From Histomonas meleagridis (taxonomy: Eukaryota; Parabasalia; Tritrichomonadida; Dientamoebidae), in contig WSYJ01000001.1 in NCBI GenBank assembly GCA_020186115.1, forward strand, positions 806,001-870,000: 64,000 bases of DNA, written 5' to 3'. Both the position numbers and the translations under genes were made by a program. The notes beneath the pieces are model-generated. The model did no database searches, was not told the DNA's origin, and worked only from the letters and a program-made list of their open reading frames with translations. Positions 4,727-48,462 of this stretch are shown here, in pieces; the first letter of the stretch is position 1, and each line of letters begins with the position of its first letter.

Positions 4727-6056
4727 TTATTTAGTAAGCATTTGAATAATATCAGCGTATCCATTATTGGATGCATACATAATTGCTGTTTTGAATAATT
4801 TAAAAAAATTCCAAACATTTTCATGAAATATTAAATTATCAAAATAGACAAAAATTAAAATAAACAAATATCTTTAGCATTAATATCAATTCCTTTTTGC
4901 TTAACAAGTAATTTAACGATTTCTGTGTTACCACAACGAGCTGCATAAATAAGTTCTGTCCAAAATAATTAAAATAATTTCCAAATATTATATACAAATA
5001 TTATATTTTCAAAATAAACATTTAATAAAATTAATAAATATCCTTGGCATTAATATCAATTCCTTTTTGCTTAACAAGTAATTTAACGATTTCTGTGTGA
5101 TAAAAACGAGCTGCATTATTAAATGCTGTTCGCAATGATTATAAAGGATTTCATTAATTATTTTGAAATATCATATTATTAAAAGAAATTTTAAATGAAA
5201 TAAATAAATATTTTTAATATTAACATCAATTTTCTCTTGTTCAAGAAGTAATTTAACTGTTTCTATGTGACCATTTCGAGATGCCCAAATAAGAGCTGTA
5301 TCAAATATTTTCAATAATTTCCAAAATTTATTTTGAAACATTAAATTAATGTTGAAAAAATTATATATAATAAATATATATCTTTTGCATTGATATTGAT
5401 TCCTTCTTTTTCTAAAAGTAATTTAACGATTTCTGCATAACCTTGAGAAGATGCCCATATAAGTGCAGTGGAAAATATTTTATATAATTACCAAATATTA
5501 TTTTGAAACATCAAATTAATAAATTGAATTTTAAATAAAACAAAAATATATCTTTAGCATTAATATCAATTCCTTCTTGTTCAAGAACTAATTTAACAAT
5601 TTCTGTATAATCAAATTGAGATGCTCTCATAAGTGCTGTATCAAATAATTTAAATAATTTCCAAATATTATTTTGAAATATCAAATTATCAACACAAATC
5701 TTAAATAAAACAAATAAATATCTTTAGCATTAATATCAATTCCTTCTTGTTCAAGAAGTAATTTAACTATTTCTGTATAACCATTTAAAGATGCTTTAAT
5801 AAGTGCTGTTTTAAATAATTTAAATAATTTCCAAATATTATTTTGAAAATTTAAATAATTAAAATAAATATTAAATAAAACAAATAAATATCTTTAGCAT
5901 TAGTATCAATTCCTTCTTGTTCAAGAATTAATTTAACTATTTCTGTATGACCATTTTCAGATGCATATATAAGTGCTGTATTAAATAATTCAAATAATTT
6001 CCAAATATTATTTTGAAATATCAAATTATCAACACAAATCTTAAATAAAGCAAATA
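4727..6056 (-). repeat. Ankyrin exon/insert array, 170-bp period, eight units
   Basis: The conserved TGCTGT (codons for T-A, read on the minus strand) recurs at exactly 170-bp spacing from 5976 down to 4786. Units are diverged in sequence but not in length. Each has 99 nt coding for a repeat of the type TALxxASxNGHTEIVKLLLEQxGIDINAKDI and 71 nt of AT-rich sequence with stops. The TTTGGAAATTA-like element lies about 12 nt before each coding block. Confidence 0.9.
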
Positions 6057-7379
6057 AATATCTTTAACATTTACATCAATTTCTTTTTGGTCAAGAATAA
6101 ATTTAACAAGTTCAAAATTTTCTGATTCTATAGATTTAAGCAAAATATCCATAGGAATATTATTATTTTTGAGGAAATGTTTTACAAGATATAAGTTTCC
6201 TATTCTTACACACTCATTGATAGTAAAATCATCAATATCCAGACCTTCTTTTTCTAAAAACGAAAGAATTTCATAACTTCCATTGATGATACACAAATAA
6301 CCTAAGTCATTAATATTTTGGTACATTTCATCATTTTGCTGGTCGCGAAATAAATATGATAATGAACGTCTATATATTATTGAATTATTTTGAATATTTT
6401 CACTAAATTTTTCTAATTCTTTTTCATAAATATATTTAAAGACATCATTTCGATGATATTCAATTGCTGCTCCATATGAACCATAAAATGATGAATGATT
6501 TTGTTCACATAAATGAATAATTGCAATGTTTCCTCCTGCAACTGCATATTTACCTGTGTTATATACTTCAGCACCATTCATAAGCAAATATTTAAAACAT
6601 TTTATCGATCCAAAAAATGCTGCATAATCAATTAATGAAACATTTTCTTGATTTATAAAATCACATCTTTCATAAAGTGATGGTTCAATTGTTTGATTAA
6701 CATCAAAATCTTTTTGTGATATTATTTCTTGAAGTTTTTCTATTTCATCATTTCGAATTATTTTTGCAATTTCATTTGGATTATGCCCTTCTTTAACATA
6801 TTTCTTATGAAGCTCAAAATTATTCTGTGAAAGTTTTTCATAATTTTTTATAAATGATCTTTCAATTGGATCATGTATCACAAAAGCAAATCTAGAATTT
6901 CTGCATTGTTTGATTTCTTTATTTTCTTTATATTGCGCAAAATATTTTGATTTAATATTTTTTGTTATATCTTTATCAATTAAATTTCTTTCAATCATGT
7001 TCTCTATAAGATAAAATGCTTCATGAGTACTAATTTTTGTTGTGTGATTGATAAAAAAGTCGATGATTTTATAATTATTTTTACAAGTTTTTTCTTCTTT
7101 CTTTTGAATCGTTTCAAAATAATGTAAGTAAAAATTGAAACTTGAACTTGTTATATTCTTTTGAGATGAAATTGAATAATAAGTCAAATAACTTATTATA
7201 AAATTAAAAGAATACGAAAATATTGGATCATATAAATTCATTGTTTTTTGAACTGATGATTCAAAATTTTCTTCTGATAAATTAAATATGATTTGTTCAA
7301 GCAAGATAAGTTTTTCCATTTCTGGGTCATTCCCTTCTCTCTTTTTGAAAAAAATACGATTCCTATTGTTAGAGTACAT
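4727..7379 (-). CDS. DUF3447 protein with eight downstream ankyrin units, apparently multi-exon
   Basis: The first block, 7379-6057, encodes 441 residues: a helical N-terminus, the DUF3447 core (IRNDEIEKLQEIISQKDF, PSLYERCDFIN, IDYAAFFGSIKCFKYLL, KYAVAGGNIAIIHLCEQN) and the start of the ankyrin region (KFILDQKEIDVNVKDI). That frame stops 12 codons later. Removing 71 nt (6056-5986) rejoins it to an ankyrin repeat beginning FNTAL at 5985. Further 33-residue repeats begin at 5815, 5645, 5475, 5305, 5135 and 4965, each after 71 nt, and a terminal half-repeat runs 4795-4727, ending IIQMLTK and TAA. The joined product would be about 694 residues. Function is unknown; ankyrin repeats suggest protein binding. 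Whether the 71-nt pieces are really removed is inferred from frame logic only. Confidence 0.75.
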
Positions 7380-15399: not shown

Positions 15400-16228
15400 T
15401 TATTTAATAGCATTTTCAAGAAGTTCAATAATTTCAGTGTTTCCTTTATCTTTTGCAATTTCAAGTGCAGTTTTCAATAAAGTAAATAAACATGAATTAT
15501 ATATTTGAAACCCAAAATTGTAAATATAAGCACACAATAAGAGATATATTCATTTATAGCATTAAGATTAATGTCATCATGTTTAAGAAGTGCTTTAATT
15601 ATCTCAACATTTTCACGTTCAGTAGCAAATAAAAGTGCTGTTTGGAACTTTATGAATAAATTCCAAATTTTAATGTAAAATATTAAATTATTGAAATAAG
15701 CCATAATTAAAATTAAGAAACATCTCTAGCATTTATATCAATTCCTTCTTGTTCAAGAAGGAGTTTAGCAGCTTCAGTGTGATTTTTTGCACAGGAAGAC
15801 ATAAGAGGAGTCCAAAATATTTATTATATATTCCAAATATTATATTGATATCAGAAACTATTTAATTAATTTTCATATGTACAAAACAAATATCTTTTAC
15901 ATTAATATCAATTCCTTCTTGTTCAAGTAATATTTTAACAATTTCTATATTACCAAAAAAGGATGCACAAATAAGTGGAGTATTAAACAATTTTATGAAA
16001 TTTGAAAATAATTTATCAAATAATAAATTATTAAAATAATCATTAAAATAATAATAAAAATATCTTTAGAATTAATATCTATACCTTTTTGCTCAAGAAG
16101 TAATTTAAAGATGTTTGTATATCCATATTCAGATGCAATATGAATAGCTTTCCTAAATAATTTGAATTATTTCCAAATTTTATTTTTAAATATTAAATTT
16201 CTTGAATTAACTTTAATCAATTCAATAA
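15400..16228 (-). repeat. Ankyrin exon/insert array, 170-bp period, five units
   Basis: Coding blocks begin at 16157, 15987, 15817, 15647 and 15477 (minus strand), spaced exactly 170 bp. One block reads FWTPLMSSCAKNHTEAAKLL, a clean ankyrin consensus with TPL. The inserts differ strongly in base sequence from the array at 4727-6056 but have the same length. Confidence 0.9.
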
Positions 16229-17422
16229 AACATCTTTAGCATTTATATTTATACCTTTTTGATCAAGAAAATATTTCACAAGTTCAATATTTCCTGAAGA
16301 TGTTGAGTAAGCTATAATATTACTTGGGATTTCTGTTTTTTCCATAAAATATTTAGAAAGATAAAGGTTTCCGTTACTTGCTGCTGTATTAAACATTGAT
16401 TCATTAATATTTATTCCTTCATCTAGTAAAAATGAAAGAATTTCATAATTATCAAAAAAAACGCATTTCATTCCTAAATCAGTTAGATCAGGTACTTCAA
16501 TTATCTTATTATTATACAAATATTTAAAGATATCATTTCGATGAAATTCAATTGCTGCTTCATATGAACTATATTTTAATGAATGATTTTGTTCACATAA
16601 ATGAATTATTTCAGTATTTCCTCCTGCGATTGCATATTTACCTGTGCTTTCTAATTTTGCTCCATTCAACATCAAAAATTTAAAACATTTAATTGATCCA
16701 AAAAATGCTGCATAATCAATCAATGTAACATGATTATAGTTAACAAATGAACATTTCTCATAAAGTGATGGAATAATTCGTTGATTAAAATCAAAGTTCG
16801 CTTGTGATGATATTTCTTGAAGTTTTTCGATTTCATCATTTCGAATTATTTTAGCAAGTTCATTTGGATTAATTCCTTCATGCATTAATTTCTGATGAAG
16901 TTCCCAATCATTCTGAGAAAGGTCATTGATGTTTTCTACAAGATTTTTCCAAAACAAACTTTTGTTTTCATAATCAAAAAATTCATCCATCATTGGTGTT
17001 TTGTTTTTTATTGAGTTTGCTGTTTTTTCAATTCTATATTGTGCAAAATAAATTGAATTCTTACTTTTTATTATATCTGATGATATTAAGTTTTCTTCAT
17101 ACATACTCCAAAGAAGATAATTTGCTCCATTTTTAGAAAAGAAATGACATATAACATAAAGAAAAATTTCTATAATATCAATGCCTTTTTCATTAATATG
17201 TTTTCTTAATTCTTTTAAAAAAAGCAAAAGCTGATTTTTATCATATCCTGTAGAGCAATAAAAAGAAAAGGCAATTCTGCATATATTAAGAGAAAAAGAA
17301 TATGGATTTGTTTTATCAAATAATGAAATGATTTTATGAATTGATGAATCGATGCCTTCTTTTACAGAATTAAAAATAATATGTTCAAGAGATAAAATTG
17401 TGCTAAGGTTTTGCTGTGACAT
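15400..17422 (-). CDS. DUF3447 protein with five downstream ankyrin units, apparently multi-exon
   Basis: The first block, 17422-16229, encodes 398 residues with the family core (NELAKIIRNDEIEKLQEISS, PSLYEKCSFVN, IDYAAFFGSIKCFKFLM, GKYAIAGGNTEIIHLCEQN) and ends in LDQKGININAKDV. The frame stops three codons later. Skipping 71 nt (16228-16158) rejoins it to FRKAIHIASEYGYTNIFKLL. Later repeats start at 15987, 15817 and 15647, each after 71 nt, and the terminal half-repeat 15477-15400 ends LLENAIK and TAA. The sequence is clean: exon 1 is exactly divisible by three and no frameshift is needed inside exons. The joined product would be about 555 residues. This is the clearest complete example of the layout in the window. 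Confidence 0.8.
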
Positions 17423-21706: not shown

Positions 21707-22631
21707 TTATTTTGTGTATTCTTCTTCAGTATATTCTTCTTCGTCATAGTAATCAGAATAATCTGATACTGAGTAATATGATACACTTTCATCATCAAGT
21801 TCTAATGTTTTAAAATAATTTATTTCATTGTCTTTGGTTTCACGTACATTTTTAAGTAATAAATTTGCAATTGTATAATTTTTCATTTTATAAGCAATTG
21901 AAAATGTTGAATCAAATTATTAAAATAAACACCATCAAATTGTAGAAATTAAATTTTAATATGATATAAAAACATTTTTTGCATTAGTATCAATATCTTT
22001 TTGTCTTAAAAGTTTTCGAACTATTCCATAATGATTACATCGTGACACTTTTATAAGAACTGTATTAAATTTATGAAATAAATATAAAATTTTCTTTTGG
22101 AACAGAAAAAAAATCATATTAACAAGAAAACTTAAAAATAAATATCTTTACAATTAATATCGGTATTTTCATTTTCAACAAGAAATTTAACAACAGTATA
22201 AAATCCTTTTTCAGATGCTTCCATTAAAGCTGTATAAAATTAATTTGAAGAACGCCAAATAATAAAACAAAACAAAGAATTTTATATTTTAATATTATAA
22301 CAATCAAAAAAATATCTTGATTATTTATTTCAAGATCTTTATGTTGAAGTAAGACTTTAACAGCTTCAACACTTCCATTTTCACAAGCAAATGCTAATGC
22401 AGAACAAAATCATATAAATAAATTCCAAATCAAAAAGAAAAATATCACAAAATAATTTATAATAACATTTCTTTCATTTAATAGTTTTGGATATTTTTTA
22501 AGTATATAATTTATAACTTCAACTGATCTCTTTGAACGAGCACTCATAAGAACTGTAAAAAACAAAATGAATAAATTCCAAAAATATCATAAAAACATCA
22601 AAACAAGAAAAAAAACTGGTAAAAAAACTAA
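21707..22631 (-). repeat. Ankyrin exon/insert array with 71- and 54-nt inserts
   Basis: Five coding blocks. Three are complete 33-residue repeats ending in a D-I or N-V pair, for example FYTALMEASEKGFYTVVKFL. Two inserts are 71 nt and two are 54 nt; the shorter ones are 17 nt short. The TTTGGAATTTA element is kept before the block at 22409. Confidence 0.75.
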
Positions 22632-23760
22632 AAAACATTAGGATTTGAAGCCTTACCATCTTTTTTTTAAGATAAATATTTAATGAATTCAAGATTCTCT
22701 GATACGCCACACATATAACCTATTTTTCTTGAGATATTTTTATTTCCTATATAACTCTTTAAAGAAATGGATTTCCATTTACCAATTATTTTCTTAGAAG
22801 TCATTTTTAATCCATTATTAATTAAATAAGTAAGAATTTTACAACAATAATTTTCAATACATTCATTAACAACTCCATCATTAAATTCTTCGAGATTATT
22901 TTCATAAATATAATTAAATATTTCATTTCGATGATATTTAATTGCATACATATAAGAACGTTTAAAACTTAATCCTCGTTTAGCACATAATTTAAGAATT
23001 TCAATTTGATTTCCAGCAACTGCAAATAAAACAGAACGAGCAAAATGCATTTCATCTGATTTCTCAGCAAAATATTTAAAACATTTCATAGCTCCAAAAT
23101 ATGCACAATATTCTATTAAGAAATTTGGACTATTCTTTAATATAAAGTTATTTCTTTCATAAAGGAAAAATCCAATTGCATTAACATTTTCTTTTTGAAT
23201 TATTCCTTTCAGTTTTTCAAGATTATCTTTACAAATTGCATCTACAATTGGTGATGGTTTTCTTCCTGGATGAATAAATGTAATATGTCTTTCCCAATTA
23301 TTTCTTTTAAGATTTTCAATTCCAACAGCCAATTCTTTTCCATAAGGATAATCATAAAGATTAAATTTTTCTTTCCGATGTGCAAAATATAATGAATTTA
23401 TATCTGCAACAAACTCTGATTGAATGAGATGCTGTTCTATCATTGTTTCTAAAAGAAAATATGCTTCTTGTGGATTTAAACCATAAAGAAATTGACTAAA
23501 TTGTTGAATTAATGAAATATTAACATTATAAAGTTCTTTTTCCTTAGATTCAACTAATTGTAAATAAACTAAATATACTTTTTCATTTTTTGTAACTGAA
23601 GCATATCCATCATAAGTTAATTTAATAAGAATTTTATTGAATGAATATGGAAAGACAGAATTATAGTTTCTTGTACAGAAGTTCCAATATTTTCTTGCTT
23701 ATATAAATCAATTGTGATTTTTTCAGATGTTTGAGTAACTTGATTTCCAGCAATCCACAT
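21707..23760 (-). CDS. DUF3447 protein with divergent ankyrin units and acidic C-terminal tail; frameshifts
   Basis: The body (23760-22632) holds divergent family blocks: FLLETMIEQHLIQSEF, YFAHRKEKF, LFAVAGNQIEILKLCAKRG and AIKYHRNEIFNYIYENN. An ATG at 23760 (MWIAGNQ) is preferred to the TTG upstream. One frame change lies near 23645-23660, and another at an A8 run near 22658-22665. Ankyrin blocks follow at 22562, 22409, 22239 and 22069, separated by about 69, 54, 71 and 71 nt. The last block, 21916-21707, encodes a half-repeat (FDSTFSIAYKMKNYTIANLL) followed by about 45 residues with an acidic Asp/Glu/Tyr/Ser tail and TAA. A genuine C-terminal tail at the end of the array argues that the units belong to one gene. 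Confidence 0.65.
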
Positions 23761-24679: not shown

Positions 24680-25407
24680 TTTGGGTTCAAACGATTTTCG
24701 GTTTAACCACAAAAAGTGATTGTTCCTGTTTGAATTCCTTGGGGTTGAACAGCCCATGGTCTCCATTAATCTATGTGTAACAAATATTTTTAATTCTAAA
24801 GTTTTGAAAAGAAAATATTATTTAAATATATATCATATGTTATATACTATGAAAATGGATGGTGTTAGTCCAAATTTTTGGAGAATTTAATTTAGAGATT
24901 GAAAATTGAAGAAATATAAAATAAGTCGTGTAAACTATCATAAAATTAATATCATGATTATACTCATTTTTTTATGAATAGCTTTTATATAAAATTTCAT
25001 ATGGAAATTATTTATTATCTTTTATTTTGGATCATTTTAATATATTTAAAAAATAATTCAAGTATTATTTTACTTCGTGGATACATGTTGCCATATAAAA
25101 TTAATAATTTTCACAATAAATACAACTTATGTCATAAAACTTTTTTATTTGACTTTAAGAAAGAATTATAAGATCATATTTAACAGATTTTTTATCATTC
25201 TAGTGGACATATCAAAAATTTTGACTGTATTTGATATAATTTACTTAACCTTAGGTATAACATACATTTTATTATAAATGTCTAACTACCCCCCTACGAA
25301 TTTGAACAAAAGATTTTTTACAGGCACCTCCCAATTGGTGATATGTGTACTTTACATCAAATTCGAATATTATCGGAATTGGTCTGCGGTTGTGCAATTT
25401 ACCCATT
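24680..25407. other. Outer part of left arm, no gene recognised
   Basis: Mirrors 47771-48462. Overlapping frames of 65-66 codons (24974-25277) are conserved between the arms only because the DNA is duplicated. They are rich in Ile, Leu, Lys and Asn and match nothing I know. The boundary with the ankyrin array at about 25408 is abrupt: the last insert breaks off after AAATTATTAATGG and no terminal ankyrin exon follows. Confidence 0.5.
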
Positions 25408-26321
25408 AATAATTTCCAAATATTATTTTGAAAATTTAAATAATTAAAATAAATTTCAAATAAAACAAATAAATATCTTTAGCATTAATATCAATTCCTT
25501 CTTGTTCAAGAAGTAATTTAACTATTTCTGTATAACCATTTTCAGATGCATACATAAGTGCTGTTTTAAATAATTTAAATAATTTCCAAATATTATTTTG
25601 AAATATAAAATTATCAACACAAATCTTAAATAAAACAAATAAATATCTTTAGCATTAATATCAATTCCTTCTTGTTCAAGAACTAATTTAACTATTTCTG
25701 TATGACCATTTGAAGATGCTCTCATAAGTGCTGTATTAAATAATTTAAATAATTTCCAAATATTATTTTGAAATATTAAATTATTAAAATAAATTTCAAA
25801 TAAAACAAATAAATATCTTTAGCATTAATATCAATTCCATTTTGTTCAAGAACTAATTTAACTATTTCTGTATGACCATTTCTAGATGCATAAATAAGTG
25901 CTGTATTAAATAATTTAAATAATTTCCAAATATTATTTTGAAATAAGAAATTATTAAAATAAATTTTCAATAAAACAAATAAATATCTTTAGCATTAATA
26001 TCAATTCCTTCTTGTTCAAGAAGTAATTTAACTATTTCTGTATGACCATTTTCAGATGCATATATAAGTGCTGTTTTAAATAATTTAAATAATTTCCAAA
26101 TATTATTTTGAAATATAAAATTATCAACACAAATCTTAAATAAAACAAATAAATATCTTTAGCATTAATATCAATTCCTTCTTGTTCAAGAACTAATTTA
26201 ACTATTTCTGTATGACCATTTCTAGATGCATACATAAGTGCTGTAAAAAATAATTTAAATAATTTCCAAATATTATTTTGAAATATTAAATTATTAAAAT
26301 AAATTTCAAATAAAACAAATG
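25408..26321 (-). repeat. Ankyrin exon/insert array, left arm, five units
   Basis: Units are exactly 170 bp and nearly identical, typified by TALMYASRNGHTEIVKLVLE then QEGIDINAKDI. Neighbouring units alternate between MYASRNG, MYASENG and RASSNG variants. The right arm has eleven units at the same place. Confidence 0.92.
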
Positions 26322-27488
26322 AATATTTTTAGCATTAATATCAATTCCTTCTTGTTTTAAAACGTATTTAACAAGTTCAATATTTCCTGATCCAGATGAA
26401 AATACCAATGTGTCATGAGGAATTGCATGCTCTTTTAGAAAATATTCAACTAAAAAAATATTTCCAATAATTGCTGCTTCATTAATAATATCATCATTGG
26501 TTTTCATTCCTTCTTTAACTAAAAATGAAAATATTTCATAATTATGATATAAAATACAAAGCTTTCCTAATTCTTCTAAATTATTAATTTCTTTTAATTT
26601 ATTTTCATAAATATATTTAAAGATATCATTTCGATGGAACTCAATTGCTGCTTCATATGCATCTTCAAATGATGAATGATTTTGTTCACATAAATGAATG
26701 ACTTCAAGATTTCCACCTGCAACTGCATATTTACCTGTGTTTATTACTTTTGCACCATTCATAAGTAAATATTTAAAACATTGAATTGATCCCAAAAAAT
26801 GCTGCATAATCAATTAATCTAACATTTCCTTTATTAACTAAAGAACACATTTCATAAAGTGATGGAACAATAAATTGATTAAAATCAAAATTTGTTTGTG
26901 ATGATATTTCTTGAAGTTTTTCTATTTCATCATTTCTAATTATTTTTTGCTATTTCATTTGGATTATGTCCTTCTCTGATTAATTTCTTATGTAATTCCC
27001 AATCATTCTTTGAAAGTTCTTCATAATTTGGTAAGACATGTACAAATAAATGTTTCCTTAAACCGATTGATTCTTTATCTTTAGACACATGATGCCCAAA
27101 ATAAGCACTCTTGTTGTTTTTTTACAATGTTTGGTTCAAGAAAATTATGTTCAATCATAGCTTCAAGAAGATAAAATGATTCATATGTATGTTTATTATT
27201 AAGAAATCGCCCAAATATATCAAATATATTCGATTTGATTTGATTATTCTCTTCAAATGTTCTTATTTCTTTTATAATATTTAAAAATAAATCCACTTTA
27301 TTATTTTTAATCACAAAGGAATAATATATCATTTGAATAATAATTAAATCATAAGATAAAGGATGGATTTTATCAAATTTGTTGACTATTAAATTTAAAG
27401 ATTTAGAGGAATTCTCTTCATTCAAACTAAAAATTGCTTGATTTATTGATATAAATGTTTCCCATTTGCAAAGTTCATTTGGCCTCAT
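25408..27488 (-). CDS. DUF3447 protein with ankyrin array, left-arm copy, three frame-breaking insertions
   Basis: Left copy of the gene at 44671. The ATG at 27488 begins MRPNELCKWETF. Compared with the undamaged right copy, three extra bases break the frame: a T in the T run at about 27118-27123, a T at about 26942-26947 and a C in the CCC at about 26791-26793. Exon 1 otherwise ends at 26322 with GIDINAKNI. Five ankyrin units follow, with coding blocks starting at 26250, 26080, 25910, 25740 and 25570, each after a 71-nt insert. No terminal half-repeat or stop exon is present before the array breaks off at about 25408. It is either a decaying copy or intact with residual sequencing errors. 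Confidence 0.65.
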
Positions 27489-28266
27489 GTGGAAAATATT
27501 AATAACGGATATACCAATTCAAATTTGAATTAAAATTTGAGAGTATAAACCAGTGAAAAAGTTGAATTTATCAAGCAAAAATGAAAATGCCATATTTCAT
27601 AAAATAAAATAATAAAAGTAAGCTTATTATTATCGCCAATTAAAAGTACATTCCAAATTATTAAAACATATTATAAAATATTCAAAATAATAAATTTTGG
27701 ATTAACATCAATTCCTTCTTTATCTTAAAGTTATTTTATTATTTCTAATTGATATATAAAGTGCTGTTTCAAATTATTAAAACAGTCAACGAACGATCCT
27801 CTTTCCAGAATTCCTTTTAATTATTAATTTATATGCACAGTCAATACTACTGATCAGGCTATCCTAAAAAACTTTCTAACACAATTCTACATCAAAATAT
27901 TTAAGGGAATCGTTTATTCCGTCGGACAGACCTAGTCAAAATCTATGATTCAAAAAAATTTTTGCGGGCAATAACAACAACAGAAACCATGGCAAACCGA
28001 CAAGAAATTAAAGCAAAATATTGTACTTTGGGTAAATAAAAAATTACCTAAATCAATAAAATAAATACAATTTGAGTAATTAAAAAAATGTTAAAATATT
28101 CAATAATATCAATTATAATTCTAATCTTTCATCAATCTGATTTTTTATTGCCAATTTGCAAGTGTGTGTTTGGCGAAACAATAACGGCCACCACGTAAAG
28201 TTATGAAAAAATGGTACGATAGAGCATCACAGAAAAGTATTTGAAACCGTTAATCTAATTTCTTTT
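27489..28266. promoter_or_regulatory. Divergent promoter region with an ankyrin relic, left arm
   Basis: Head-to-head DUF3447 genes flank this region. At 27690-27773 (minus strand) a degenerate ankyrin block reads FETALYIS, then a frame-broken remainder ending near a GIDVNPK-like sequence. ATAACGGAT at 27499-27507 lies 11-19 nt before the ATG at 27488, and GAAACCGTTAA at 28243-28253 lies 14-24 nt before the ATG at 28267. Both are copies of the Myb-site-like motif. The mirror copy is 43895-44670. Confidence 0.45.
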
Positions 28267-31065
28267 ATGATAAACAATCCAACTCATCTTCAAATAGTAG
28301 ACACTGAATTCTTGCAAAATGAAATTGAAAGACAACAATCTTTTTTGTTATATAAAACAATATTTTCATTAAATGAAACGAATATAAAAACTTCAGTCAA
28401 AACGACGATTTCTTTAATTGATTCAGAATATACATTTTCTTTTAATAAAATGATTTGTAGATTAATATATTCTGCTTTTTTATCAAGAATGAATCAAGAA
28501 GAAATATATTTTCAATATTTAAATCTTCTTCAAGATCAAATAAAACAAATAAAACGAAATGACAAAGGAATTTTTTGAAATATTATCAGAAATACTTCTA
28601 AATATACATTCGAATGAATCTTATTATCTTCTTGAAAAGATGATTCAACAAAAATACATTAAAACAAAAATGATTCAAGAACAAGATTTCCCTATTTATA
28701 AAGAAGTTTCAAATAATGATAATGAAATTCATAATCAATTAATTTTAGAAGGAGTTAATCCGAATGAAATCTCAAAAATTATTCGAAATGATGAAATAGA
28801 AAAACTTCAAGAAATAACATCACAAAATAATTTTAATTTTAATCAAATGATTAAACCATCAGTTTATGAAAGATTTTCATTTATTAACAAAGAAAATATT
28901 CCATTAATTAATTATGCAGCATTTTTTGGCTCAATTGAATGTTTTAAATATTTATTATTGAATGGTGCAAAATTAAAAAACACAGGAAAATATGCAATTG
29001 CAGGTGGAAATCTTGAAATCATTCATTTATGTGAACAAAATCATTCATCATTTGAAGATGCATATGAAACATCAATTGAGTTTCATCGAAATGATATTTT
29101 TAAATATCTTTATGATAATAACATTTTAAGTCAATATAATTTAAATGAAATGAGTTATAAAAGTATTTTCTATAATAATTATGAAATTTTACTATTTTTT
29201 GAAAGAGAAGGGCTCAAAATAAACAATCGAATAATTCGAAAGTTAATCATGAATGATAATATAATTTTGATTAAGTTATATCTTAAAAGAAAAAACAAAT
29301 TCAATTTCATGAAATTATATCAATATCAAAAACTTGAAATCATGAAATTAATTCTATCACAAGAAGGAATTGATATTAATTTACAAGATATTTCTTATAT
29401 TATTTTAAAATTTCATTGAATAATATAAAATTTCAAAATAAACATTGGGGATTAAGTTTAATATTTAATACATCACTTATGCAAATAATTAAAGATAATC
29501 GTAAAGGAATATTTAACTTTCTTGTTGAACAAAATAAAATTGATTTTAATATTCAAAACATGAATTTCTTTTATATAATTTTTCTTTTAATGTAATAATA
29601 TTTCTTCATAATAATTGGAAATTCTTATAAATATTTGAAACAGCATTAATGATAGCGTCACAAAAAGGAAATATTCAATTTTTGAAAAAAATTCTTGAAT
29701 ATAAAACAATTGATATTAATATTAAAAATATGAAATTCTTTTATTTAAAATTTGTTTTAATAAAAATGATGTTTCAAAACAATATTTGGAAATTAATATA
29801 AAAATTTGAGACAGCATTTATGATCGGATGTAAATATAATCAATATAATATTGTTAAAGAACTTCTTGAACAAGATAAAATTGATATTAATTCTAAGAAT
29901 ATTTATTTGTTATAAATAACATTTATTTAAATAAAACATTTTTTCATTTTTATATTTGGAAATTATATGAATTATTTACGACAGCATTAATGATTGTATG
30001 TGACTATAATCATTATAATATTGTTAAACTACTTCTTGATCAAAAACAAATAGATATTAATGCCAAAGATGTTTCTTTATTATAATAAAATGATATTTCA
30101 AAATAATATTTGAAAGTTAAGCAAATTATTTGAAACAGCACTTATTTATGCAGTATTTAAAGGAAATACAGAAATTGTTAAAATTCTTCTTGAACAAAAA
30201 GGAATTGATATCAATAATAAAAATGATTTTTTTTTTATTATTTAATATTTATTTCAATAAATTTATAATATAAAATTTTATTTGGAGATTAACTAAATCA
30301 TTTGAAACAGCATTAATGATTTCATGTAAGTATAATCATTATGATATAGTGAAAATACTTATTGAACAAAAAAGAAATTGATATTAATGCTAAAGATATT
30401 TATTAATTATATATAAAATTTAATTATACTAAATGATATTTCAAAATAATATTTGGAAATAATTAAATTTATTTGAAACGGCACTTATTTATGCAGTACT
30501 TAAAGGGAATATAGAAATTGTTAAAATTCTTCTTGAACAAAAAGGAATTGATATCAATTATAAAAATAATAATTTGTATTATTTAATATTTTTTTTAATC
30601 ATAATATTTTAAAAAATAATATTTGGAATTTAATTAAAATATATAAAACAATACTTTTTATAGCATCATGGAAAAGTTTTGATAAAATATTTAAATTACT
30701 TCTTGAACAAGAAAATATTGATATTAATTCACAAAATATTTCAACATTATCATTAAAATATCATTTAATAATTACGAATTTCAAAATGAATTTTGGTGAT
30801 TCTAATAAATATTTAATACATCACTTATGGTTGCATGTAAAAATGGACATTTATCGATTGTACAAATTCTTCTTAAACAAAAAGGGATTGATATCAATGC
30901 AAAAAATATATCTTTTTTGATCACAAAACATCTTTTAAATATTTAATACATAAAATTAATATTTGGGGATTAAACGAAACATTTGAAACAGCGCTTATGA
31001 TTGCAAATAAAAAGCACCACATTTTAATAGTTCTTGAAATACAGAAGTACAAAGAATCACAATGA
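28267..31065 (+). CDS. DUF3447 protein with ten downstream ankyrin units, left-arm copy, one frameshift in exon 1
   Basis: Exon 1 (28267-29392) encodes about 375 residues: MINNPTHLQIVDTEF, the DUF3447 core (NEISKIIRNDEIEKLQEITS, PSVYERFSFIN, INYAAFFGSIECFKYLL) and an end at GIDINLQDI. An extra T in the run at 28571-28576 breaks the frame; the right copy lacks it. Ankyrin blocks start at 29464, 29634, 29805, 29975, 30129, 30300, 30472, 30642, 30812 and 30982. Inserts are 71-72 nt, with one of 55 nt. The block at 30300 has an extra A in its AAAAAA run. The last block ends LIVLEIQKYKESQ and TGA at 31063-31065. Units here are old and diverse, yet spacing stays at 170-172 bp in nearly all cases. 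Confidence 0.72.
29393..31065 (+). repeat. Diverged ankyrin exon/insert array, left arm, ten units
   Basis: ACA codons marking each block lie at 29470, 29640, 29811, 29981, 30135, 30306, 30478, 30648, 30818 and 30988. Conserved insert features are a T-rich 5' part and TTTGGAAATTA-type sequence about 12 nt before the coding block. Examples of blocks are FETALIYAVFKGNTEIVKIL and FETALMIANKKHHILIVLE. Confidence 0.85.
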
Positions 31066-31531
31066 TTATCATAATAAATAATATAAGCCATAAATTTTGA
31101 GATGAAAAATGATACTAAAATATTTTCATGGTAATATATAAACATTATTAAAACGTAAAATTTTGTAAATTTTTATTCAATAAACATTGTTTTATAATAA
31201 AATGAAATAGAAATAAAAATAATGATTGAATCAATATCTCATTACTTATTTTTATCATATCTCGAGAAAGTGTTTGAAATGTGGTGAAAATACATATCAA
31301 AAAAAATCATAGATATAATTATCTTCAAATTTTTATTTACATTCCTTAACACCATCATAAATTTGAAAATAAGTCTAATAAATGCATAAAGAGTAAATCG
31401 AAATCTGACGAGTGAATTGAATTGAACAACGAAGAAATAACCGTCACCGAGATAAAGTAAAGAAACGATTGAATTGAAAGAAGTTAAGTGTTCGGTTATT
31501 TACAAAACAATTTTTCAACATTAAATAAGTT
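31066..31531. promoter_or_regulatory. Upstream region of phosphoglycerate mutase, left arm
   Basis: 466 bp between a DUF3447 stop and the ApgM start. TAACCGTCACC at 31437-31447 and TTCGGTTAT at 31491-31499 lie about 90 and 35 nt before the ATG and resemble the recurring promoter motif. No other feature was recognised. The mirror copy is 40626-41091. Confidence 0.4.
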
Positions 31532-32859: not shown

Positions 32860-33093
32860 AATGAAACAAAAGCATGAATGAATAAACAAATAAATTCCAT
32901 ATTTTATGTAAACATCTGTAAGGGGAAATTCAGTAATCACAACATAAAGATTAAATACATTTCCTCATGCATTATTTATCTCAAATGTAGAGCTTCAAAC
33001 TTATCGTGACACTTTTTCTTGAATGAATTTATTTAATGAAATTTCAATGGGATATTGTCAGAAAAACCAAAAAAGTTGAATCAAGGATATCGT

Positions 33094-34637: not shown

Positions 34638-34972
34638 ATTTCGTAATGATGATAAATTGAAAGAATTATTTCAAAGGATTTAATAACATCGTTGAAATTT
34701 CTTAACAACCGAATTCGATTCAAACAACTCTCTGACAAGTGTCACAATTTCAATTAAATTGTAACGTATTTTAATTCAAATGGTTTCTCAAATCAAATAT
34801 TCGTAACGACAATTTCAATTGAATTGTAACGTATTTTAATTCAAATGGTTTCTCGAATCAGGTTTTCCTATCAAAAAGTTTATAACGACATCACCTACAT
34901 CATTTTCAGAACAAAATTTAACTACAATATTTCATTAGTTTTATTTATTAAATCTTGCAGAAAAGAGAAACC
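34638..34972. repeat. 65-bp direct repeat upstream of the membrane protein gene, left arm
   Basis: Two copies of a block containing CAATTTCAATT, then GTAACGTATTTTAATTCAAA and TGGTTTCTC, lie at about 34744-34860 with a 65-bp period. Each includes the near-palindrome CAATTTCAATTGAATTG. The mirror copy is at 37404-37517. Its position in the 5' flank of the multi-pass membrane gene suggests regulation, but this is inference. Confidence 0.6.
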
Positions 34973-35374
34973 TTAACAATGCAAGAATGTGTGGAATATT
35001 TCCATTCCTTTCATTTCGACTTCCCAATCATGTTTACATTCGCATATAGTAACTATAATCATAGTAATTAATAAAATGACGAATGTAACGAAATAAGCTA
35101 AAAAGAAAACACTATCACCACCACCAGCGTCATCAGTATATAAAATTGGATTATTACCCGATGATACGATTGACTGTCTTGGGCCAACTGGTTTATATAA
35201 GTTATAAGGATTTTGAACATTTTCGTATGTGCCGCAACCTAAAACAAATACATTTGAATGATTTATTGTATATTTTGATTCAAAAATGCTGTGAAAAGCC
35301 ATCAAAAAGCTCAATTGAATAATTAACGGCTTCAAAATCTGACATGAGTTCACAAAAACATTGTTCAGCATCAT
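34973..35374 (-). pseudogene. Truncated C-terminal copy of a type I membrane protein
   Basis: From 35266 to 34973 this is identical in sense to the end of the gene at 36685-37275: INHSNVFVLGCGTYENVQNP, a transmembrane helix FFLAYFVTFVILLITMIIV and the cytoplasmic tail ending FHTFLHC. The bases before 35266 are unrelated to that gene, so the N-terminal half and promoter are missing. An ATG at 35374 opens a frame that overlaps the stop of the upstream gene in TAATG, but the first 36 residues are probably accidental coding. This marks the inner breakpoint of the inverted duplication. Confidence 0.75.
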
Positions 35375-41091: not shown

Positions 41092-43894
41092 TCATTGTGA
41101 TTCTTTGTACTTCTGTATTTCAAGAACTATTAAAATGTGGTGCTTTTTATTTGCAATCATAAGCGCTGTTTCAAATGTTTCGTTTAATCCCCAAATATTA
41201 ATTTTATGTATTAAATATTTAAAAGATGTTTTGTGATCAAAAAAAGATATATTTTTTGCATTGATATCAATCCCTTTTTGTTTAAGAAGAATTTGTACAA
41301 TCGATAAATGTCCATTTTTACATGCAACCATAAGTGATGTATTAAATATTTATTAGAATCACCAAAATTCATTTTGAAATTCGTAATTATTAAATGATAT
41401 TTTAATGATAATGTTGAAATATTTTGTGAATTAATATCAATATTTTCTTGTTCAAGAAGTAATTTAAATATTTTATCAAAACTTTTCCATGATGCTATAA
41501 AAAGTATTGTTTTATATATTTTAATTAAATTCCAAATATTATTTTTTAAAATATTATGATTAAAAAAAATATTAAATAATACAAATTATTATTTTTATAA
41601 TTGATATCAATTCCTTTTTGTTCAAGAAGAATTTTAACAATTTCTATATTCCCTTTAAGTACTGCATAAATAAGTGCCGTTTCAAATAAATTTAATTATT
41701 TCCAAATATTATTTTGAAATATCATTTAGTATAATTAAATTTTATATATAATTAATAAATATCTTTAGCATTAATATCAATTTCTTTTTGTTCAATAAGT
41801 ATTTTCACTATATCATAATGATTATACTTACATGAAATCATTAATGCTGTTTCAAATGATTTAGTTAATCTCCAAATAAAATTTTATATTATAAATTTAT
41901 TGAAATAAATATTAAATAATAAAAAAAAAATCATTTTTATTATTGATATCAATTCCTTTTTGTTCAAGAAGAATTTTAACAATTTCTGTATTTCCTTTAA
42001 ATACTGCATAAATAAGTGCTGTTTCAAATAATTTGCTTAACTTTCAAATATTATTTTGAAATATCATTTTATTATAATAAAGAAACATCTTTGGCATTAA
42101 TATCTATTTGTTTTTTGATCAAGAAGTAGTTTAACAATATTATAATGATTATAGTCACATACAATCATTAATGCTGTCGTAAATAATTCATATAATTTCC
42201 AAATATAAAAATGAAAAAATGTTTTATTTAAATAAATGTTATTTATAACAAATAAATATTCTTAGAATTAATATCAATTTTATCTTGTTCAAGAAGTTCT
42301 TTAACAATATTATATTGATTATATTTACATCCGATCATAAATGCTGTCTCAAATTTTTATATTAATTTCCAAATATTGTTTTGAAACATCATTTTTTTTT
42401 TTTTTTATTTTAAATAAAAGAATTTCATATTTTTAATATTAATATCAATTGTTTTATATTCAAGAATTTTTTTCAAAAATTGAATATTTCCTTTTTGTGA
42501 CGCTATCATTAATGCTGTTTCAAATATTTATAAGAATTTCCAATTATTATGAAGAAATATTATTACATTAAAAGAAAAATTATATAAAAGAAATTCATGT
42601 TTTGAATATTAAAATCAATTTTATTTTGTTCAACAAGAAAGTTAAATATTCCTTTACGATTATCTTTAATTATTTGCATAAGTGATGTATTAAATATTAA
42701 ACTTAATCCCCAATGTTTATTTTGAAATTTTATATTATTCAATGAAATTTTAAAATAATATAAGAAATATCTTGTAAATTAATATCAATTCCTTCTTGTG
42801 ATAGAATTAATTTCATGATTTCAAGTTTTTGATATTGATATAATTTCATGAAATTGAATTTGTTTTTTCTTTTAAGATATAACTTAATCAAAATTATATT
42901 ATCATTCATGATTAACTTTCGAATTATTCGATTGTTTATTTTGAGCCCTTCTCTTTCAAAAAAAATAGTAAAATTTCATAATTATTATAGAAAATACTTT
43001 TATAACTCATTTCATTTAAATTATATTGACTTAAAATGTTATTATCATAAAGATATTTAAAAATATCATTTCGATGAAACTCAATTGATGTTTCATATGC
43101 ATCTTCAAATGATGAATGATTTTGTTCACATAAATGAATGATTTCAAGATTTCCACCTGCAATTGCATATTTTCCTGTGTTTTTTTAATTTTGCACCATT
43201 CAATAATAAATATTTAAAACATTCAATTGAGCCAAAAAATGCTGCATAATTAATTAATGGAATATTTTCTTTGTTAATAAATGAAAATCTTTCATAAACT
43301 GATGGTTTAATCATTTGATTAAAATTAAAATTATTTTGTGATGTTATTTCTTGAAGTTTTTCTATTTCATCATTTCGAATAATTTTTTGAGATTTCATTC
43401 GGATTAACTCCTTCTAAAATTAATTGATTATGAATTTCATTATCATTATTTGAAACTTCTTTATAAATAGGGAAATCTTGTTCTTGAATCATTTTTGTTT
43501 TAATGTATTTTTGTTGAATCATCTTTTCAAGAAGATAATAAGATTCATTCGAATGTATATTTAGAAGTATTTCTGATAATATTTCAAAAATTCCTTTGTC
43601 ATTTCGTTTTATTTGTTTTATTTGATCTTGAAGAAGATTTAAATATTGAAAATATATTTCTTCTTGATTCATTCTTGATAAAAAAGCAGAATATATTAAT
43701 CTACAAATCATTTTATTAAAAGAAAATGTATATTCTGAATCAATTAAAGAAATCGTCGTTTTGACTGAAGTTTTTATATTCGTTTCATTTAATGAAAATA
43801 TTGTTTTATATAACAAAAAAGATTGTTGTCTTTCAATTTCATTTTGCAAGAATTCAGTGTCTACTATTTGAAGATGAGTTGGATTGTTTATCAT
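41092..43894 (-). CDS. DUF3447 protein with ten downstream ankyrin units, right-arm copy, frame breaks in exon 1
   Basis: Right copy of 28267-31065. The ATG at 43894 begins MINNPTHLQIV. Exon 1 ends at 42766. It is four bases longer than a readable frame: an extra T near 43383-43388, an extra T near 43181-43187 and two extra A near 42957-42965. The left copy's own extra T (28571-28576) is absent here. Ten ankyrin blocks follow with the same variants and insert lengths, ending in LIVLEIQKYKESQ and TGA at 41092-41094. As with ApgM, the two arms break at different sites, so either copy can be read only with help from the other. Confidence 0.7.
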
Positions 43895-44670: not shown

Positions 44671-47600
44671 ATGAGGCCAAATGAACTTTGCAAATGGGAA
44701 ACATTTATATCAATAAATCAAGCAATTTTTAGTTTGAATGAAGAGAATTCCTCTAAATCTTTAAATTTAATAGTCAACAAATTTGATAAAATCCATCCTT
44801 TATCTTATGATTTAATTATTATTCAAATGATATATTATTCCTTTGTGATTAAAAATAATAAAGTGGATTTATTTTTAAATATTATAAAAGAAATAAGAAC
44901 ATTTGAAGAGAATAATCAAATCAAATCGAATATATTTGATATATTTGGGCGATTTCTTAATAATAAACATACATATGAATCATTTTATCTTCTTGAAGCT
45001 ATGATTGAACATAATTTTCTTGAACCAAACATTGTAAAAAACAACAAGAGTGCTTATTTTGGGCATCATGTGTCTAAAGATAAAGAATCAATCGGTTTAA
45101 GGAAACATTTATTTGTACATGTCTTACCAAATTATGAAGAACTTTCAAAGAATGATTGGGAATTACATAAGAAATTAATCAGAGAAGGACATAATCCAAA
45201 TGAAATAGCAAAAATAATTAGAAATGATGAAATAGAAAAACTTCAAGAAATATCATCACAAACAAATTTTGATTTTAATCAATTTATTGTTCCATCACTT
45301 TATGAAATGTGTTCTTTAGTTAATAAAGGAAATGTTAGATTAATTGATTATGCAGCATTTTTTGGATCAATTCAATGTTTTAAATATTTACTTATGAATG
45401 GTGCAAAAGTAATAAACACAGGTAAATATGCAGTTGCAGGTGGAAATCTTGAAGTCATTCATTTATGTGAACAAAATCATTCATCATTTGAAGATGCATA
45501 TGAAGCAGCAATTGAGTTCCATCGAAATGATATCTTTAAATATATTTATGAAAATAAATTAAAAGAAATTAATAATTTAGAAGAATTAGGAAAGCTTTGT
45601 ATTTTATATCATAATTATGAAATATTTTCATTTTTAGTTAAAGAAGGAATGAAAACCAATGATGATATTATTAATGAAGCAGCAATTATTGGAAATATTT
45701 TTTTAGTTGAATATTTTCTAAAAGAGCATGCAATTCCTCATGACACATTGGTATTTTCATCTGGATCAGGAAATATTGAACTTGTTAAATACGTTTTAAA
45801 ACAAGAAGGAATTGATATTAATGCTAAAAATATTCATTTGTTTTATTTGAAATTTATTTTAATAATTTAATATTTCAAAATAATATTTGGAAATTATTTA
45901 AATTATTTTTTACAGCACTTATGTATGCATCTAGAAATGGTCATACAGAAATAGTTAAATTAGTTCTTGAACAAGAAGGAATTGATATTAATGCTAAAGA
46001 TATTCATTTGTTTTATTTAAAATTTATTTTAATAATTTTATATTTCAAAATAATATTTGGAAATTATTTAAATTATTTAAAACAGCACTTATGTATGCAT
46101 CTAGAAATGGTCATACAGAAATAGTTAAATTACTTCTTGAACAAGAAGGAATTGATATTAATGCTAAAGATATTTATTTGTTTTATTTGAAATTTATTTT
46201 AATTATTTAAATTTTCAAAATAATATTTGGAAATTATTTAAATTATTTAATACAGCACTTATGATTGCATCTTCAAATGGTCATACAGAAATAGTTAAAT
46301 TACTTCTTGAACAAGAAGGAATTGATATTAATGCTAAAGATATTTATTTGTTTTATTTAAAATTTATTTTAATAATTTGATATTTCAAAATAATATTTGG
46401 AAATTATTTAAATTATTTAATACAGCACTTATGTATGCATCTAGAAATGGTCATACAGAAATAGTTAAATTAGTTCTTGAACAAGAAGGAATTGATATTA
46501 ATGCTAAAGATATTTATTTGTTTTATTTGAAATTTATTTTAATTATTTAAATTTTCAAAATAATATTTGGAAATTATTTAAATTATTTAATACAGCACTT
46601 ATGATTGCATCTTCAAATGGTCATACAGAAATAGTTAAATTACTTCTTGAACAAGAAGGAATTGATATTAATGCTAAAGATATTTATTTGTTTTATTTAA
46701 AATTTATTTTAATAATTTGATATTTCAAAATAATATTTGGAAATTATTTAAATTATTTAATACAGCACTTATGTATGCATCTAGAAATGGTCATACAGAA
46801 ATAGTTAAATTAGTTCTTGAACAAGAAGGAATTGATATTAATGCTAAAGATATTTATTTGTTTTATTTGAAATTTATTTTAATAATTTGATATTTCAAAA
46901 TAATATTTGGAAATTATTTAAATTATTTGATACAGCACTTATGTATGCATCTAGAAATGGTCATACAGAAATAGTTAAATTACTTCTTGAACAAGAAGGA
47001 ATTGATATTAATGCTAAAGATATTTATTTGTTTTATTTGAAATTTATTTTAATTATTTAAATTTTCAAAATAATATTTGGAAATTATTTAAATTATTTAA
47101 TACAGCACTTATGATTGCATCTTCAAATGGTCATACAGAAATAGTTAAATTACTTCTTGAACAAGAAGGAATTGATATTAATGCTAAAGATATTTATTTG
47201 TTTTATTTGAAATTTATTTTAATAATTTGATATTTCAAAATAATATTTGGAAATTATTTAAATTATTTAATACAGCACTTATGTATGCATCTAGAAATGG
47301 TCATACAGAAATAGTTAAATTAGTTCTTGAACAAGAAGGAATTGATATTAATGCTAAAGATATTTATTTGTTTTATTTGAAATTTATTTTAATAATTTGA
47401 TATTTCAAAATAATATTTGGAAATTATTTAAATTATTTGATACAGCACTTATGTATGCATCTAGAAATGGTCATACAGAAATAGTTAAATTAGTTCTTGA
47501 ACAAGAAGGAATTGATATTAATGCTAAAGATATTTATTTGTTTTATTTGAAATTTATTTTAATTATTTAAATTTTCAAAATAATATTTGGAAATTATTTA

Positions 47601-47770
47601 AATTATTTAATACAGCACTTATGATTGCATCTTCAAATGGTCATACAGAAATAGTTAAATTACTTCTTGAACAAGAAGGAATTGATATTAATGCTAAAGA
47701 TATTTATTTGTTTTATTTGAAATTTATTTTAATTATTTAAATTTTCAAAATAATATTTGGAAATTATTAA
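44671..47770 (+). CDS. DUF3447 protein with eleven ankyrin units, right-arm copy, exon 1 intact
   Basis: Exon 1 (44671-45834) encodes 388 residues without frameshift: MRPNELCKWETFISINQAIF, NEIAKIIRNDEIEKLQEISS, PSLYEMCSLVN, IDYAAFFGSIQCFKYLLMNG, KYAVAGGNLEVIHLCEQN and the end GIDINAKNI. The frame stops 11 codons later; skipping 71 nt (45835-45905) rejoins FFTALMYASRNGHTEIVKLV. Ankyrin blocks start at 45906 and then every 170 bp to 47606, eleven in all. No terminal half-repeat follows: the last insert breaks off near 47770 into unrelated sequence. The gene thus lacks the normal end. If the inserts are removed, translation would run into the flank. Confidence 0.7.
45835..47770 (+). repeat. Homogeneous ankyrin exon/insert array, right arm, eleven units
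   Basis: ACAGCACTT lies at 45912, 46082, 46252, 46422, 46592, 46762, 46932, 47102, 47272, 47442 and 47612, exactly 170 bp apart. Units are nearly identical and come in alternating types (MYASRNG with VLEQ, MIASSNG with LLEQ), which suggests duplication of two- or three-unit blocks. Both coding and insert parts are conserved here, so this array is young. Confidence 0.95.
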
Positions 47771-48462
47771 TGGGTAAATTGCACAACCGCAGACCAATTC
47801 CGATAATATTCGAATTTGATGTAAAGTACACATATCACCAATTGGGAGGTGCCTGTAAAAATCTTTTGTTCAAATTCGTGGGGGTAGTTAGACATTTATA
47901 ATAAAATGTATGTTATACCTAAGGTTAAGTAAATTATATCAAATACAGTCAAAATTTTTGATATGTCCACTAGAATGATAAAAAATCTGTTAAATATGAT
48001 CTTATAATTCTTTCTTAAAGTCAAATAAAAAAGTTTTATGACATAAGTTGTATTTATTGTGAAAATTATTAATTTTATATGGCAACATGTATCCACGAAG
48101 TAAAATAATACTTGAATTATTTTTTAAATATATTAAAATGATCCAAAATAAAAGATAATAAATAATTTCCATATGAAATTTTATATAAAAGCTATTCATA
48201 AAAAAATGAGTATAATCATGATATTATAATTCTATGAGATGATAATTAAATTCTCCCACTCCAAAAATTTGGACTAACACCATCCATTTTCATAGTATAT
48301 AACATATGATATATATTTAAATAATATTTTCTTTTCAAAACTTTAGAATTAAAAATATTTGTTACACATAGATTAATGGAGACCATGGGCTGTTCAACCC
48401 CAAGGAATTCAAACAGGAACAATCACTTTTTGTGGTTAAACCGAAAATCGTTTGAACCCAAA
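47771..48462. other. Outer part of right arm, no gene recognised
   Basis: Mirror of 24680-25407. It begins with AATGGGTAAATTGCACAACC, replacing the terminal ankyrin exon. No coding or RNA feature is supported. Differences from the left arm cluster near 48210-48260. Confidence 0.5.

What the first reader, a model, noticed from the sequence alone, without database searches (positions are those of the whole stretch)
4727..7379. Ankyrin arrays follow a strict 99-nt coding plus 71-nt insert rule that restores one reading frame
In this gene the frame of exon 1 stops 12 codons after the first ankyrin start. Skipping exactly 71 nt there, and 71 nt after each following 99-nt block, joins exon 1, seven full 33-residue repeats and a terminal half-repeat into one frame. 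The same arithmetic works independently at 16228-16158, 29393-29463 and 45835-45905. 71 is not a multiple of three, so without removal every repeat is out of frame with the last. This looks like one exon per ankyrin repeat in an organism group known for very few introns.
Basis: partly seen in the sequence, partly recalled or inferred. Interest (0 to 1): 0.93.

Follow-up and report, generated by a model that had tools for sequence, protein, structure and literature searches.

The report
Ankyrin exons split by unusual introns
In a poultry gut parasite thought to have almost no introns, a large protein family appears to be built from one small exon per ankyrin repeat, separated by short inserts that must be removed but lack the normal splice signals, and the repeats vary at positions expected to touch a partner.

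Summary
The window is from Histomonas meleagridis (parabasalid, 43 Mb; an nr protein of that species is 100% identical in the same assembly). In the gene at 7379-4727, eight 71-nt inserts separate exon 1, seven 33-codon ankyrin blocks and a terminal half-repeat. The unit is genome-wide: at least 1,300 insert-bearing junctions, and no insert-free ones with the two exact patterns tried. Coding constraint stops at the block edges. Five hypervariable codons hold 0 stops in 360 blocks (195 expected). Codons one base from a stop are stops at 0.05% in blocks but 4-5% in inserts. Insert lengths fall in all three residues mod 3, so neither read-through nor one fixed frameshift works. I conclude that the inserts are excised, most likely as introns, giving one exon per repeat. 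They are not ordinary parabasalid introns: the commonest GT/AG pair breaks the frame, CTAAC is absent, and the ends do not pair. '71' is the modal length (266 of 344; 54 nt in 35), not a strict rule. The variable codons lie at ankyrin surface positions, like a natural DARPin library. No RNA or peptide evidence was available; excision is inferred from DNA alone.

The parts
6057..7379 (-). exon 1 of array 1 (ankyrin repeats and a DUF3447-like stretch), ends ...VNVKDI
   Evidence: ORF; Pfam (Ank families over cutoff, DUF3447 26.5 bits against cutoff 26.9)
4796..6056 (-). array 1: eight 71-nt inserts (6056-5986, 5886-5816, 5716-5646, 5546-5476, 5376-5306, 5206-5136, 5036-4966, 4866-4796) alternating with seven 99-nt ankyrin blocks (starts 5985, 5815, 5645, 5475, 5305, 5135, 4965)
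   Evidence: TRF period 170
4727..4795 (-). terminal half-repeat FKTAIMYASNNGYADIIQMLTK and stop
16229..17422 (-). exon 1 of array 2
   Evidence: ORF 16217-17422; Pfam (DUF3447 5.6e-14)
15400..16228 (-). array 2: inserts 16228-16158, 16058-15988, 15888-15818, 15718-15648, 15548-15478; four full blocks and a terminal half-repeat LKTALEIAKDKGNTEIIELLENAIK*
21971..22480 (-). short divergent array with three blocks (starts 22409, 22239, 22069) behind the gene at 22667-23443
25401..26420 (-). array c (left arm of the inverted repeat): last exon-1 repeat, then five blocks with 71-nt inserts
28559..29392 (+). exon 1 part of array d; the open frames of the two arms break at different places
29393..31065 (+). 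array d: divergent blocks with inserts of 71, 72 and other lengths, terminal half-repeat FETALMIANKKHHILIVLEIQKYKESQ*
41092..42765 (-). array e, mirror copy of array d
44671..45834 (+). exon 1 of array f, ends ...INAKNI
   Evidence: ORF 44671-45870; Pfam
45835..47775 (+). array f: eleven open 33-codon blocks, eleven 71-nt inserts, then a twelfth insert broken off at about 47769 by unrelated sequence

Best explanation
Each unit is a 99-nt symmetric (phase 0-0) exon coding one ankyrin repeat plus a short T-rich intron, modally 71 nt, of a non-canonical kind. A transcript runs from exon 1 through the array to a terminal exon. Every insert is taken out of the RNA, so the repeats join into one solenoid, ended by a half-repeat or, in one gene, by a long Ser/Thr/Pro-rich tail. 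Units multiply and recombine as whole 170-bp exon+intron blocks, and the codons on the ankyrin binding face diversify, giving a large family of binding proteins with a shared N-terminal exon. Shown from sequence: block coding constraint, its sharp edges, genome-wide recurrence, hypervariable codons. Inferred: transcription, removal at RNA level, function as binders.
For: (1) Stops: 0 observed against 195 expected at five hypervariable codons in 360 blocks; 0 against 181 in 329 unique blocks, and 0 against 23-30 in three draws of one block per locus-strand, n=49. (2) Codons whose commonest form is one base from a stop: stops in 2 of 3,960 in blocks; 114 of 2,394 (downstream frame) and 119 of 2,926 (upstream frame) in 266 inserts. 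The codon just after codon 33 is a stop in 8 of 266 and the one just before codon 1 in 13 of 266, so constraint ends within about one codon of the borders. (3) Insert lengths cover all three residues mod 3; 29 of 45 locus-strands with two or more inserts mix residues. (4) 53 of 66 arrays have an exon-1 match within 900 nt upstream. Behind the last insert, 31 of 66 arrays gave a terminal-repeat candidate by a loose motif score, 71 nt behind the last block in 23. The P0013 gene keeps an open frame of 306 codons, to the end of the fetched sequence, behind its fourth insert (inserts counted by eye). (5) Composition: inserts T 52%, C 2.8%; blocks T 34%, C 11%. Inserts differ pairwise 0.205, close to framework third positions 0.188; hypervariable codons 0.51. 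(6) A Prp8 U6-binding domain in a 2,333-aa open frame indicates a spliceosome. (7) P0015, on an unnamed ENA contig and 44% identical to the query, reads through a stretch very like the 54-nt insert (NKIYFNDFIFQNNIWGFLKLFKTAL), so the insert is probably shared with another species.
Against: No RNA or peptide was available. GT at offset +5 (70%) and the exonic ACAG (81%) would remove 76 nt and break the frame; any frame-compatible GT-AG near the borders exists in 67 of 266 only; CTAAC in 0 of 266. The ends do not pair. Two protein searches over sizes that would include joined products returned no Histomonas protein (6 and 12 hits), though such databases may not hold spliced products and one search scored a capped candidate list. 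No insert-free copy exists for the two patterns tried, so no natural empty site marks the junction. 11 of 360 blocks do contain a stop, and 91 of 451 anchored blocks were left out for lacking the in-frame T-A-L motif.
Confidence: 0.68

Rival explanations
1. The arrays are silent cassettes: never read as a chain, but kept open because they recombine into an expressed ankyrin gene.
For: Whole 170-bp units duplicate, and array length differs between the two 99.1% identical arms (5 against 11 blocks). No splice signals.
Against: No insert-free acceptor array seen: 0 pairs at spacing 85-115 against 1,464 at 145-175 and 0 insert-free junctions against 1,336, exact patterns only. 53 of 66 arrays sit right behind an exon-1 match, and by my count 93 of 101 scored exon-1 copies list no internal stop. 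A long coding tail lies behind the inserts of one gene.
Confidence: 0.12
2. Inserts are kept in the mRNA and the ribosome changes frame or hops over each one.
For: In 213 of 266 inserts a single frame switch could give an open path. The 54-nt inserts are a multiple of three, and 26 of 35 have no in-frame stop.
Against: Insert frames show no stop avoidance. Lengths need different shifts at different sites. Take-off and landing triplets match in at most 15 of 266 at any offset from -6 to +6. Up to 20 scored blocks stand in one array.
Confidence: 0.06
3. Spliceosomal introns of a known type (GT-AG, or AT-AC) whose true borders lie elsewhere in the unit.
For: Spliceosome present. Some of the 8 GTATGT...ACTAAC..AG strings in the genome look like normal introns by eye. 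P0022 (T. foetus) and the unnamed P0029 and P0030 turn from an ankyrin repeat into tails beginning with or soon holding Val-Leu, which would fit an intron starting with GT (inference). AT...AC pairs in a fitting frame lie near the borders in 246 of 266, without a control.
Against: GT passes 11% at one offset only, +5, of those from -9 to +17, and its AG partner breaks the frame. The only common AC is the Thr codon of the block, and using it would cut out codon 2, where 37 stops are expected and 0 occur. No CTAAC in 266.
Confidence: 0.08
4. Decayed repeats: the arrays are pseudogene tracts and only exon 1 is translated.
For: 11 of 360 blocks contain a stop, and 91 of 451 lack the motif in frame. 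Arrays d and e and one or both arms of the inverted repeat carry breaks.
Against: 0 stops against 195 expected at codons that vary freely is not what decay gives.
Confidence: 0.04

Closest known systems
Trichomonas spliceosomal introns, types A and B (PMC12316389: outline, abstract and passages seen)
   Same: Short introns in an intron-poor parabasalid; the type A length range (56-196 nt) covers 71.
   Different: The 63 T. vaginalis introns are GT/AG with an ACTAA branch site fused to the 3' end, and the most per gene reported is two (three T. stableri genes). Here up to 20 scored blocks per array, no fitting GT/AG in most inserts, no CTAAC. Their pipeline drops junctions without the motifs, so it would miss these.
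Non-canonical introns of diplonemids and euglenids (PMC12621601: abstract and outline; PMC4770533: start of abstract in a search listing)
   Same: Non-GT-AG nuclear introns; in diplonemids beside a nearly complete U2-type spliceosome.
   Different: Those bring their ends together by base pairing; here end pairing equals that of swapped partners.
Vertebrate ankyrin genes with about one 99-nt exon per repeat (recalled, not looked up)
   Same: Exon equals ankyrin repeat.
   Different: There ordinary introns of varied length; here near-uniform short inserts duplicated together with the exon.
Designed ankyrin repeat proteins (DARPins, ANK-N5C; PDB sequences)
   Same: Fixed framework with variable positions; codons 7 and 10 of the block align with residues that differ between ANK-N5C repeats.
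   Different: Natural, exon-coded, one residue longer before the D-I-N-A loop, Phe just before the variable residue ahead of T-A-L.
Lamprey VLR and Dscam type modular receptors (recalled)
   Same: Repeat or exon modules with variable faces.
   Different: No evidence here for somatic assembly or alternative splicing.

Membership tests
Parabasalid spliceosomal intron (T. vaginalis type) | GT...AG borders that keep the frame | tested here: not met
   fitting pair near the borders in 67 of 266; the dominant GT/AG pair would remove 76 nt and break the frame
Parabasalid spliceosomal intron (T. vaginalis type) | CTAA(C) branch site fused to the 3' splice site | tested here: not met
   CTAAC 0 of 266, CTAA 12 of 266 against 37 in letter shuffles
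Parabasalid spliceosomal intron (T. vaginalis type) | removed from RNA | not testable with these tools
   no RNA data
Nuclear intron in general | interrupts a coding frame whose constraint stops at its borders; insert itself non-coding | tested here: met
Euglenid/diplonemid non-canonical intron | ends brought together by RNA pairing | tested here: not met
   duplex energy of the ends equals swapped partners at 12, 18 and 24 nt (slightly better than letter shuffles at 12, worse at 18 and 24); first-12/last-12 pairing in the MFE 41 of 230 against 67 shuffled
Programmed translational bypass | matching take-off and landing codons | tested here: not met
   at most 15 of 266 at any offset from -6 to +6
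Programmed frameshift | one fixed shift and translated flank | tested here: not met
   lengths in all residues mod 3, mixed in 29 of 45 locus-strands; no stop avoidance in the insert
Ankyrin repeat protein with DUF3447 region | Pfam/PDB similarity | tested here: met
   four window exon-1 proteins: Ank families over cutoff in 3 of 4, DUF3447 over cutoff in 2 of 4; a block sequence matches designed ankyrins in PDB

The most novel reading that the evidence does not exclude
Histomonas has well over a thousand nuclear introns of an undescribed non-GT-AG class, confined as far as sampled to ankyrin arrays and marked by a T-rich insert with a conserved ATTTGGAA element. Because the exons are symmetric and interchangeable, the arrays form a natural DARPin-like library whose repeats can be added, lost, shuffled or skipped in frame, by recombination and possibly by alternative splicing.
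Probability: 0.45. Interest if true: 0.92.

Novelty: new variant of a known kind. Interest (0 to 1): 0.8.

Why it matters
The published annotation of this genome counts 573-638 introns with at most one per gene (PMC8529796). If these inserts are introns, that count is low by a factor of about three or more and genes with many introns are common in a parabasalid. How a spliceosome, or something else, finds introns without GT, AG or a branch site would become testable in an organism with more than a thousand nearly identical cases. Separately, a family with a constant framework and hypervariable binding-face codons looks like a natural repertoire of binding proteins, of which only two members turned up in the Histomonas proteins searched.

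Tried and rejected
Frame read-through and fixed frameshift: rejected. Translational hopping: rejected. GT-AG or AT-AC with other borders: rejected on frame and on codon-2 stop avoidance. Excision leaving one TA, as in ciliate internal eliminated sequences (recalled): it would remove 69 nt and leave 101, out of frame (arithmetic). RNA structure: four typed units fold no better than dinucleotide shuffles (z -0.48 to 0.47); 60 inserts have mean MFE -6.23 against -6.33 shuffled. T. vaginalis type intron strings in the genome: ACTAACACACAG 3 against 2 control; GTATGT..ACTAAC..AG 8 against 98 for the reversed pattern, which is a poor control. U1 snRNA by Rfam: nothing, but the control genomes were silent too, so uninformative. 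Viral contigs: 0. Joined proteins in the protein database: one search gave 6 hits (two named Tritrichomonas, four unnamed; only the 7,998 best candidates were scored) and one search gave 12 ankyrin proteins (three named, one of them as a fungus; I did not read them). An early 34-residue register (removal of 68 nt) was dropped because the codon after codon 33 tolerates stops. The first stop test (independent columns) has little power where one codon dominates; the near-stop test replaces it there.

Rows dropped or doubled: 91 of 451 anchored blocks without the T-A-L motif in frame were left out of the 360. L001-L008 and L010 were skipped as overlapping, so 39 of the 40 fetched regions were used. 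L052 and L055 are the same gene, so a few blocks count twice; the unique-block test removes this. The 40 regions were chosen by an insert-core match, so insert conservation is biased upward.

Full report
Source. The window is C1:806001-870000 of a 43,276,120-base, 121-contig assembly. Protein P0013, named in nr as Histomonas meleagridis, is 100% identical over 506 residues in this assembly, and the size fits the published genome (43 Mb, 28.7% GC; PMC8529796, passages seen). That paper reports 573-638 introns and at most one per gene; its gene models come from AUGUSTUS trained on a transcriptome.

Observation. The coordinates in the finding were confirmed block by block. In array 1 each of eight inserts is 71 nt and each of seven blocks is an open 33-codon ankyrin repeat of the general form FxTALMxASxxGHTEIVKLLLEQEGIDINAKDI, followed by a half-repeat and a stop. 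In the window, 39 of 40 regions chosen by an insert-core match and 7 loci from exon-1 searches, a profile scan found 418 blocks (0 in reversed sequence) and 344 inserts: 266 of 71 nt, 35 of 54, 10 of 74, the rest 14-139.

Genome-wide. The insert core occurs 2,054 times with up to 2 mismatches, reversed control 0. Two exact exon 15-mers lie 145-175 apart 1,464 times and 85-115 apart 0 times. The exact junction pattern from GCTAAAGAT to ACAGCACTT has 1,336 hits with an insert-sized gap (control 1) and 0 with a gap of 3-33. So, for copies that match these patterns, each repeat junction carries an insert. Of 341 core hits in the sample, 300 are followed by a scored block; by eye most of the other 41 are degenerate or terminal repeats, and a few are not ankyrin at all, such as the array edges at 25400 and 47776.

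Are the blocks translated? Positions 2, 7, 10, 11 and 13 of the block vary freely (301 different five-residue signatures in 360 blocks), which makes a strong test: 195 stop codons are expected there from the column frequencies and 0 occur. The result survives unique blocks only (0 against 181) and one block per locus-strand (0 against 23-30, n=49). Among codons whose commonest form is one base from a stop, blocks have 2 stops in 3,960, inserts 4.8% and 4.1% in the two neighbouring frames. Over all positions 11 of 360 blocks hold a stop, several of them in degenerate ends. The blocks are therefore selected as protein in this frame and the inserts are not. Because insert lengths fall in all residues mod 3, and 29 of 45 locus-strands with two or more inserts mix residues, the blocks can be read as one chain only if each insert is removed.

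Does the chain start and end properly? 53 of 66 arrays have an exon-1 match within 900 nt upstream. After the last scored block, 31 of 66 arrays gave a terminal-repeat candidate by a loose score that itself disfavours early stops; it lies 71 nt behind the last block in 23. In the P0013 gene the terminal exon runs open for 306 codons, to the end of the fetched sequence, as a Ser/Thr/Pro-rich repeat region; the other two frames hold 10 and 15 stops. Exon 1 itself is a large family: 101 copies were scored out of 6,906 first-look candidates for P0003, and by my count 8 of the 101 list an internal stop.

What kind of insert? T-rich (52% T, 2.8% C). Pairwise differences (0.205) are close to framework third positions (0.188), so most of it behaves as near-neutral, apart from a few conserved letters: TTTGG is in 231 of 266 against 12 in shuffles, a figure inflated by choosing loci on the insert core. 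T. vaginalis introns are GT/AG with an ACTAA branch site fused to the 3' end, and at most two per gene are reported in its relative T. stableri (PMC12316389, abstract and passages). The inserts differ in all three respects: a fitting GT-AG in only 67 of 266, no CTAAC, and up to 20 scored blocks in an array. They also fail the end-pairing feature of diplonemid and euglenid non-canonical introns. A Prp8 domain is present. The mechanism of removal is therefore open; RNA splicing with unusual borders is the most likely, and the exact border is uncertain by about one codon.

What the proteins may do. The hypervariable codons 7 and 10 align with positions that differ between repeats of the designed ankyrin ANK-N5C; that codons 2, 11 and 13 also correspond to DARPin variable positions is recalled. 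Among 10,303 block pairs with at most four framework codon differences, pN is 0.484 at hypervariable and 0.040 at framework codons (pN/pS 1.30 against 0.59). Synonymous difference is also higher at the hypervariable codons (0.374 against 0.069), so raised mutation or shuffling there is not excluded beside diversifying selection. Partner and location are unknown.

Relatives. Proteins P0001-P0012 on unnamed ENA contigs match the query exon 1 at 46-55%; of the ten I read, five end right at the K(D/G)(I/V) border. The best full-length match of P0003 in this genome is 60% (partial rows up to 65%), so it probably comes from another species. P0015 reads through an insert very like the Histomonas 54-nt class. 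Two Histomonas proteins, P0013 and P0018, were among the 28 hits and none among the 6, so this family seems largely missing from the public protein set in the sizes searched.

Literature. Searches for Tritrichomonas+intron+ankyrin, trichomonas+introns+'71 nt', Histomonas+ankyrin, DUF3447, and parabasalia+ankyrin repeat+intron+trichomonad (capped listings) showed no paper that by its title or the start of its abstract describes such arrays. PMC10063853 mentions one KANK1-named ankyrin protein in Histomonas proteomics. T. musculus and T. foetus genome papers report few or at most one intron per gene on average figures and no ankyrin introns in the passages seen.

Noticed in passing
25408-35266 against 36982-46748: Large inverted repeat (99.1% over 8.4 kb plus a second 1.4-kb stretch at 99.0%) with a 1.7-kb spacer. 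The ankyrin array differs in length between the arms (5 against 11 blocks). Real palindrome or assembly effect not settled.
   Followed up: partly
27081-28559, 32239-32859, 42300-42400: Frameshifts and runs of A that differ between the two arms suggest homopolymer errors or decay; some apparent breaks in arrays may be assembly errors.
   Followed up: partly
25400 and 47776: Both mirror arrays end abruptly at the same base inside an insert, joined to a non-ankyrin sequence (MGKLHNRRPIPIIFEFDVKYTYHQ...). Possible insertion or recombination edge.
   Followed up: no
all sampled arrays: Repeats share a near-identical framework but vary at five positions, as in a designed ankyrin library.
   Followed up: yes
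L049 (P0013 gene): The array gene carries a long Ser/Thr/Pro-rich C-terminal tail with internal repeats, unlike the short ends elsewhere in the sample.
   Followed up: partly
P0022, P0029, P0030: Related ankyrin proteins (one from Tritrichomonas foetus, two unnamed) run from a repeat into hydrophobic tails with Val-Leu near the inter-repeat position, as if reading into an intron that starts with GT.
   Followed up: no
L017, L023, L026: Arrays that mix 54-nt and 71-nt inserts; the 54-nt form lacks a 17-nt piece near the 5' border. One 14-nt insert in L042.
   Followed up: partly
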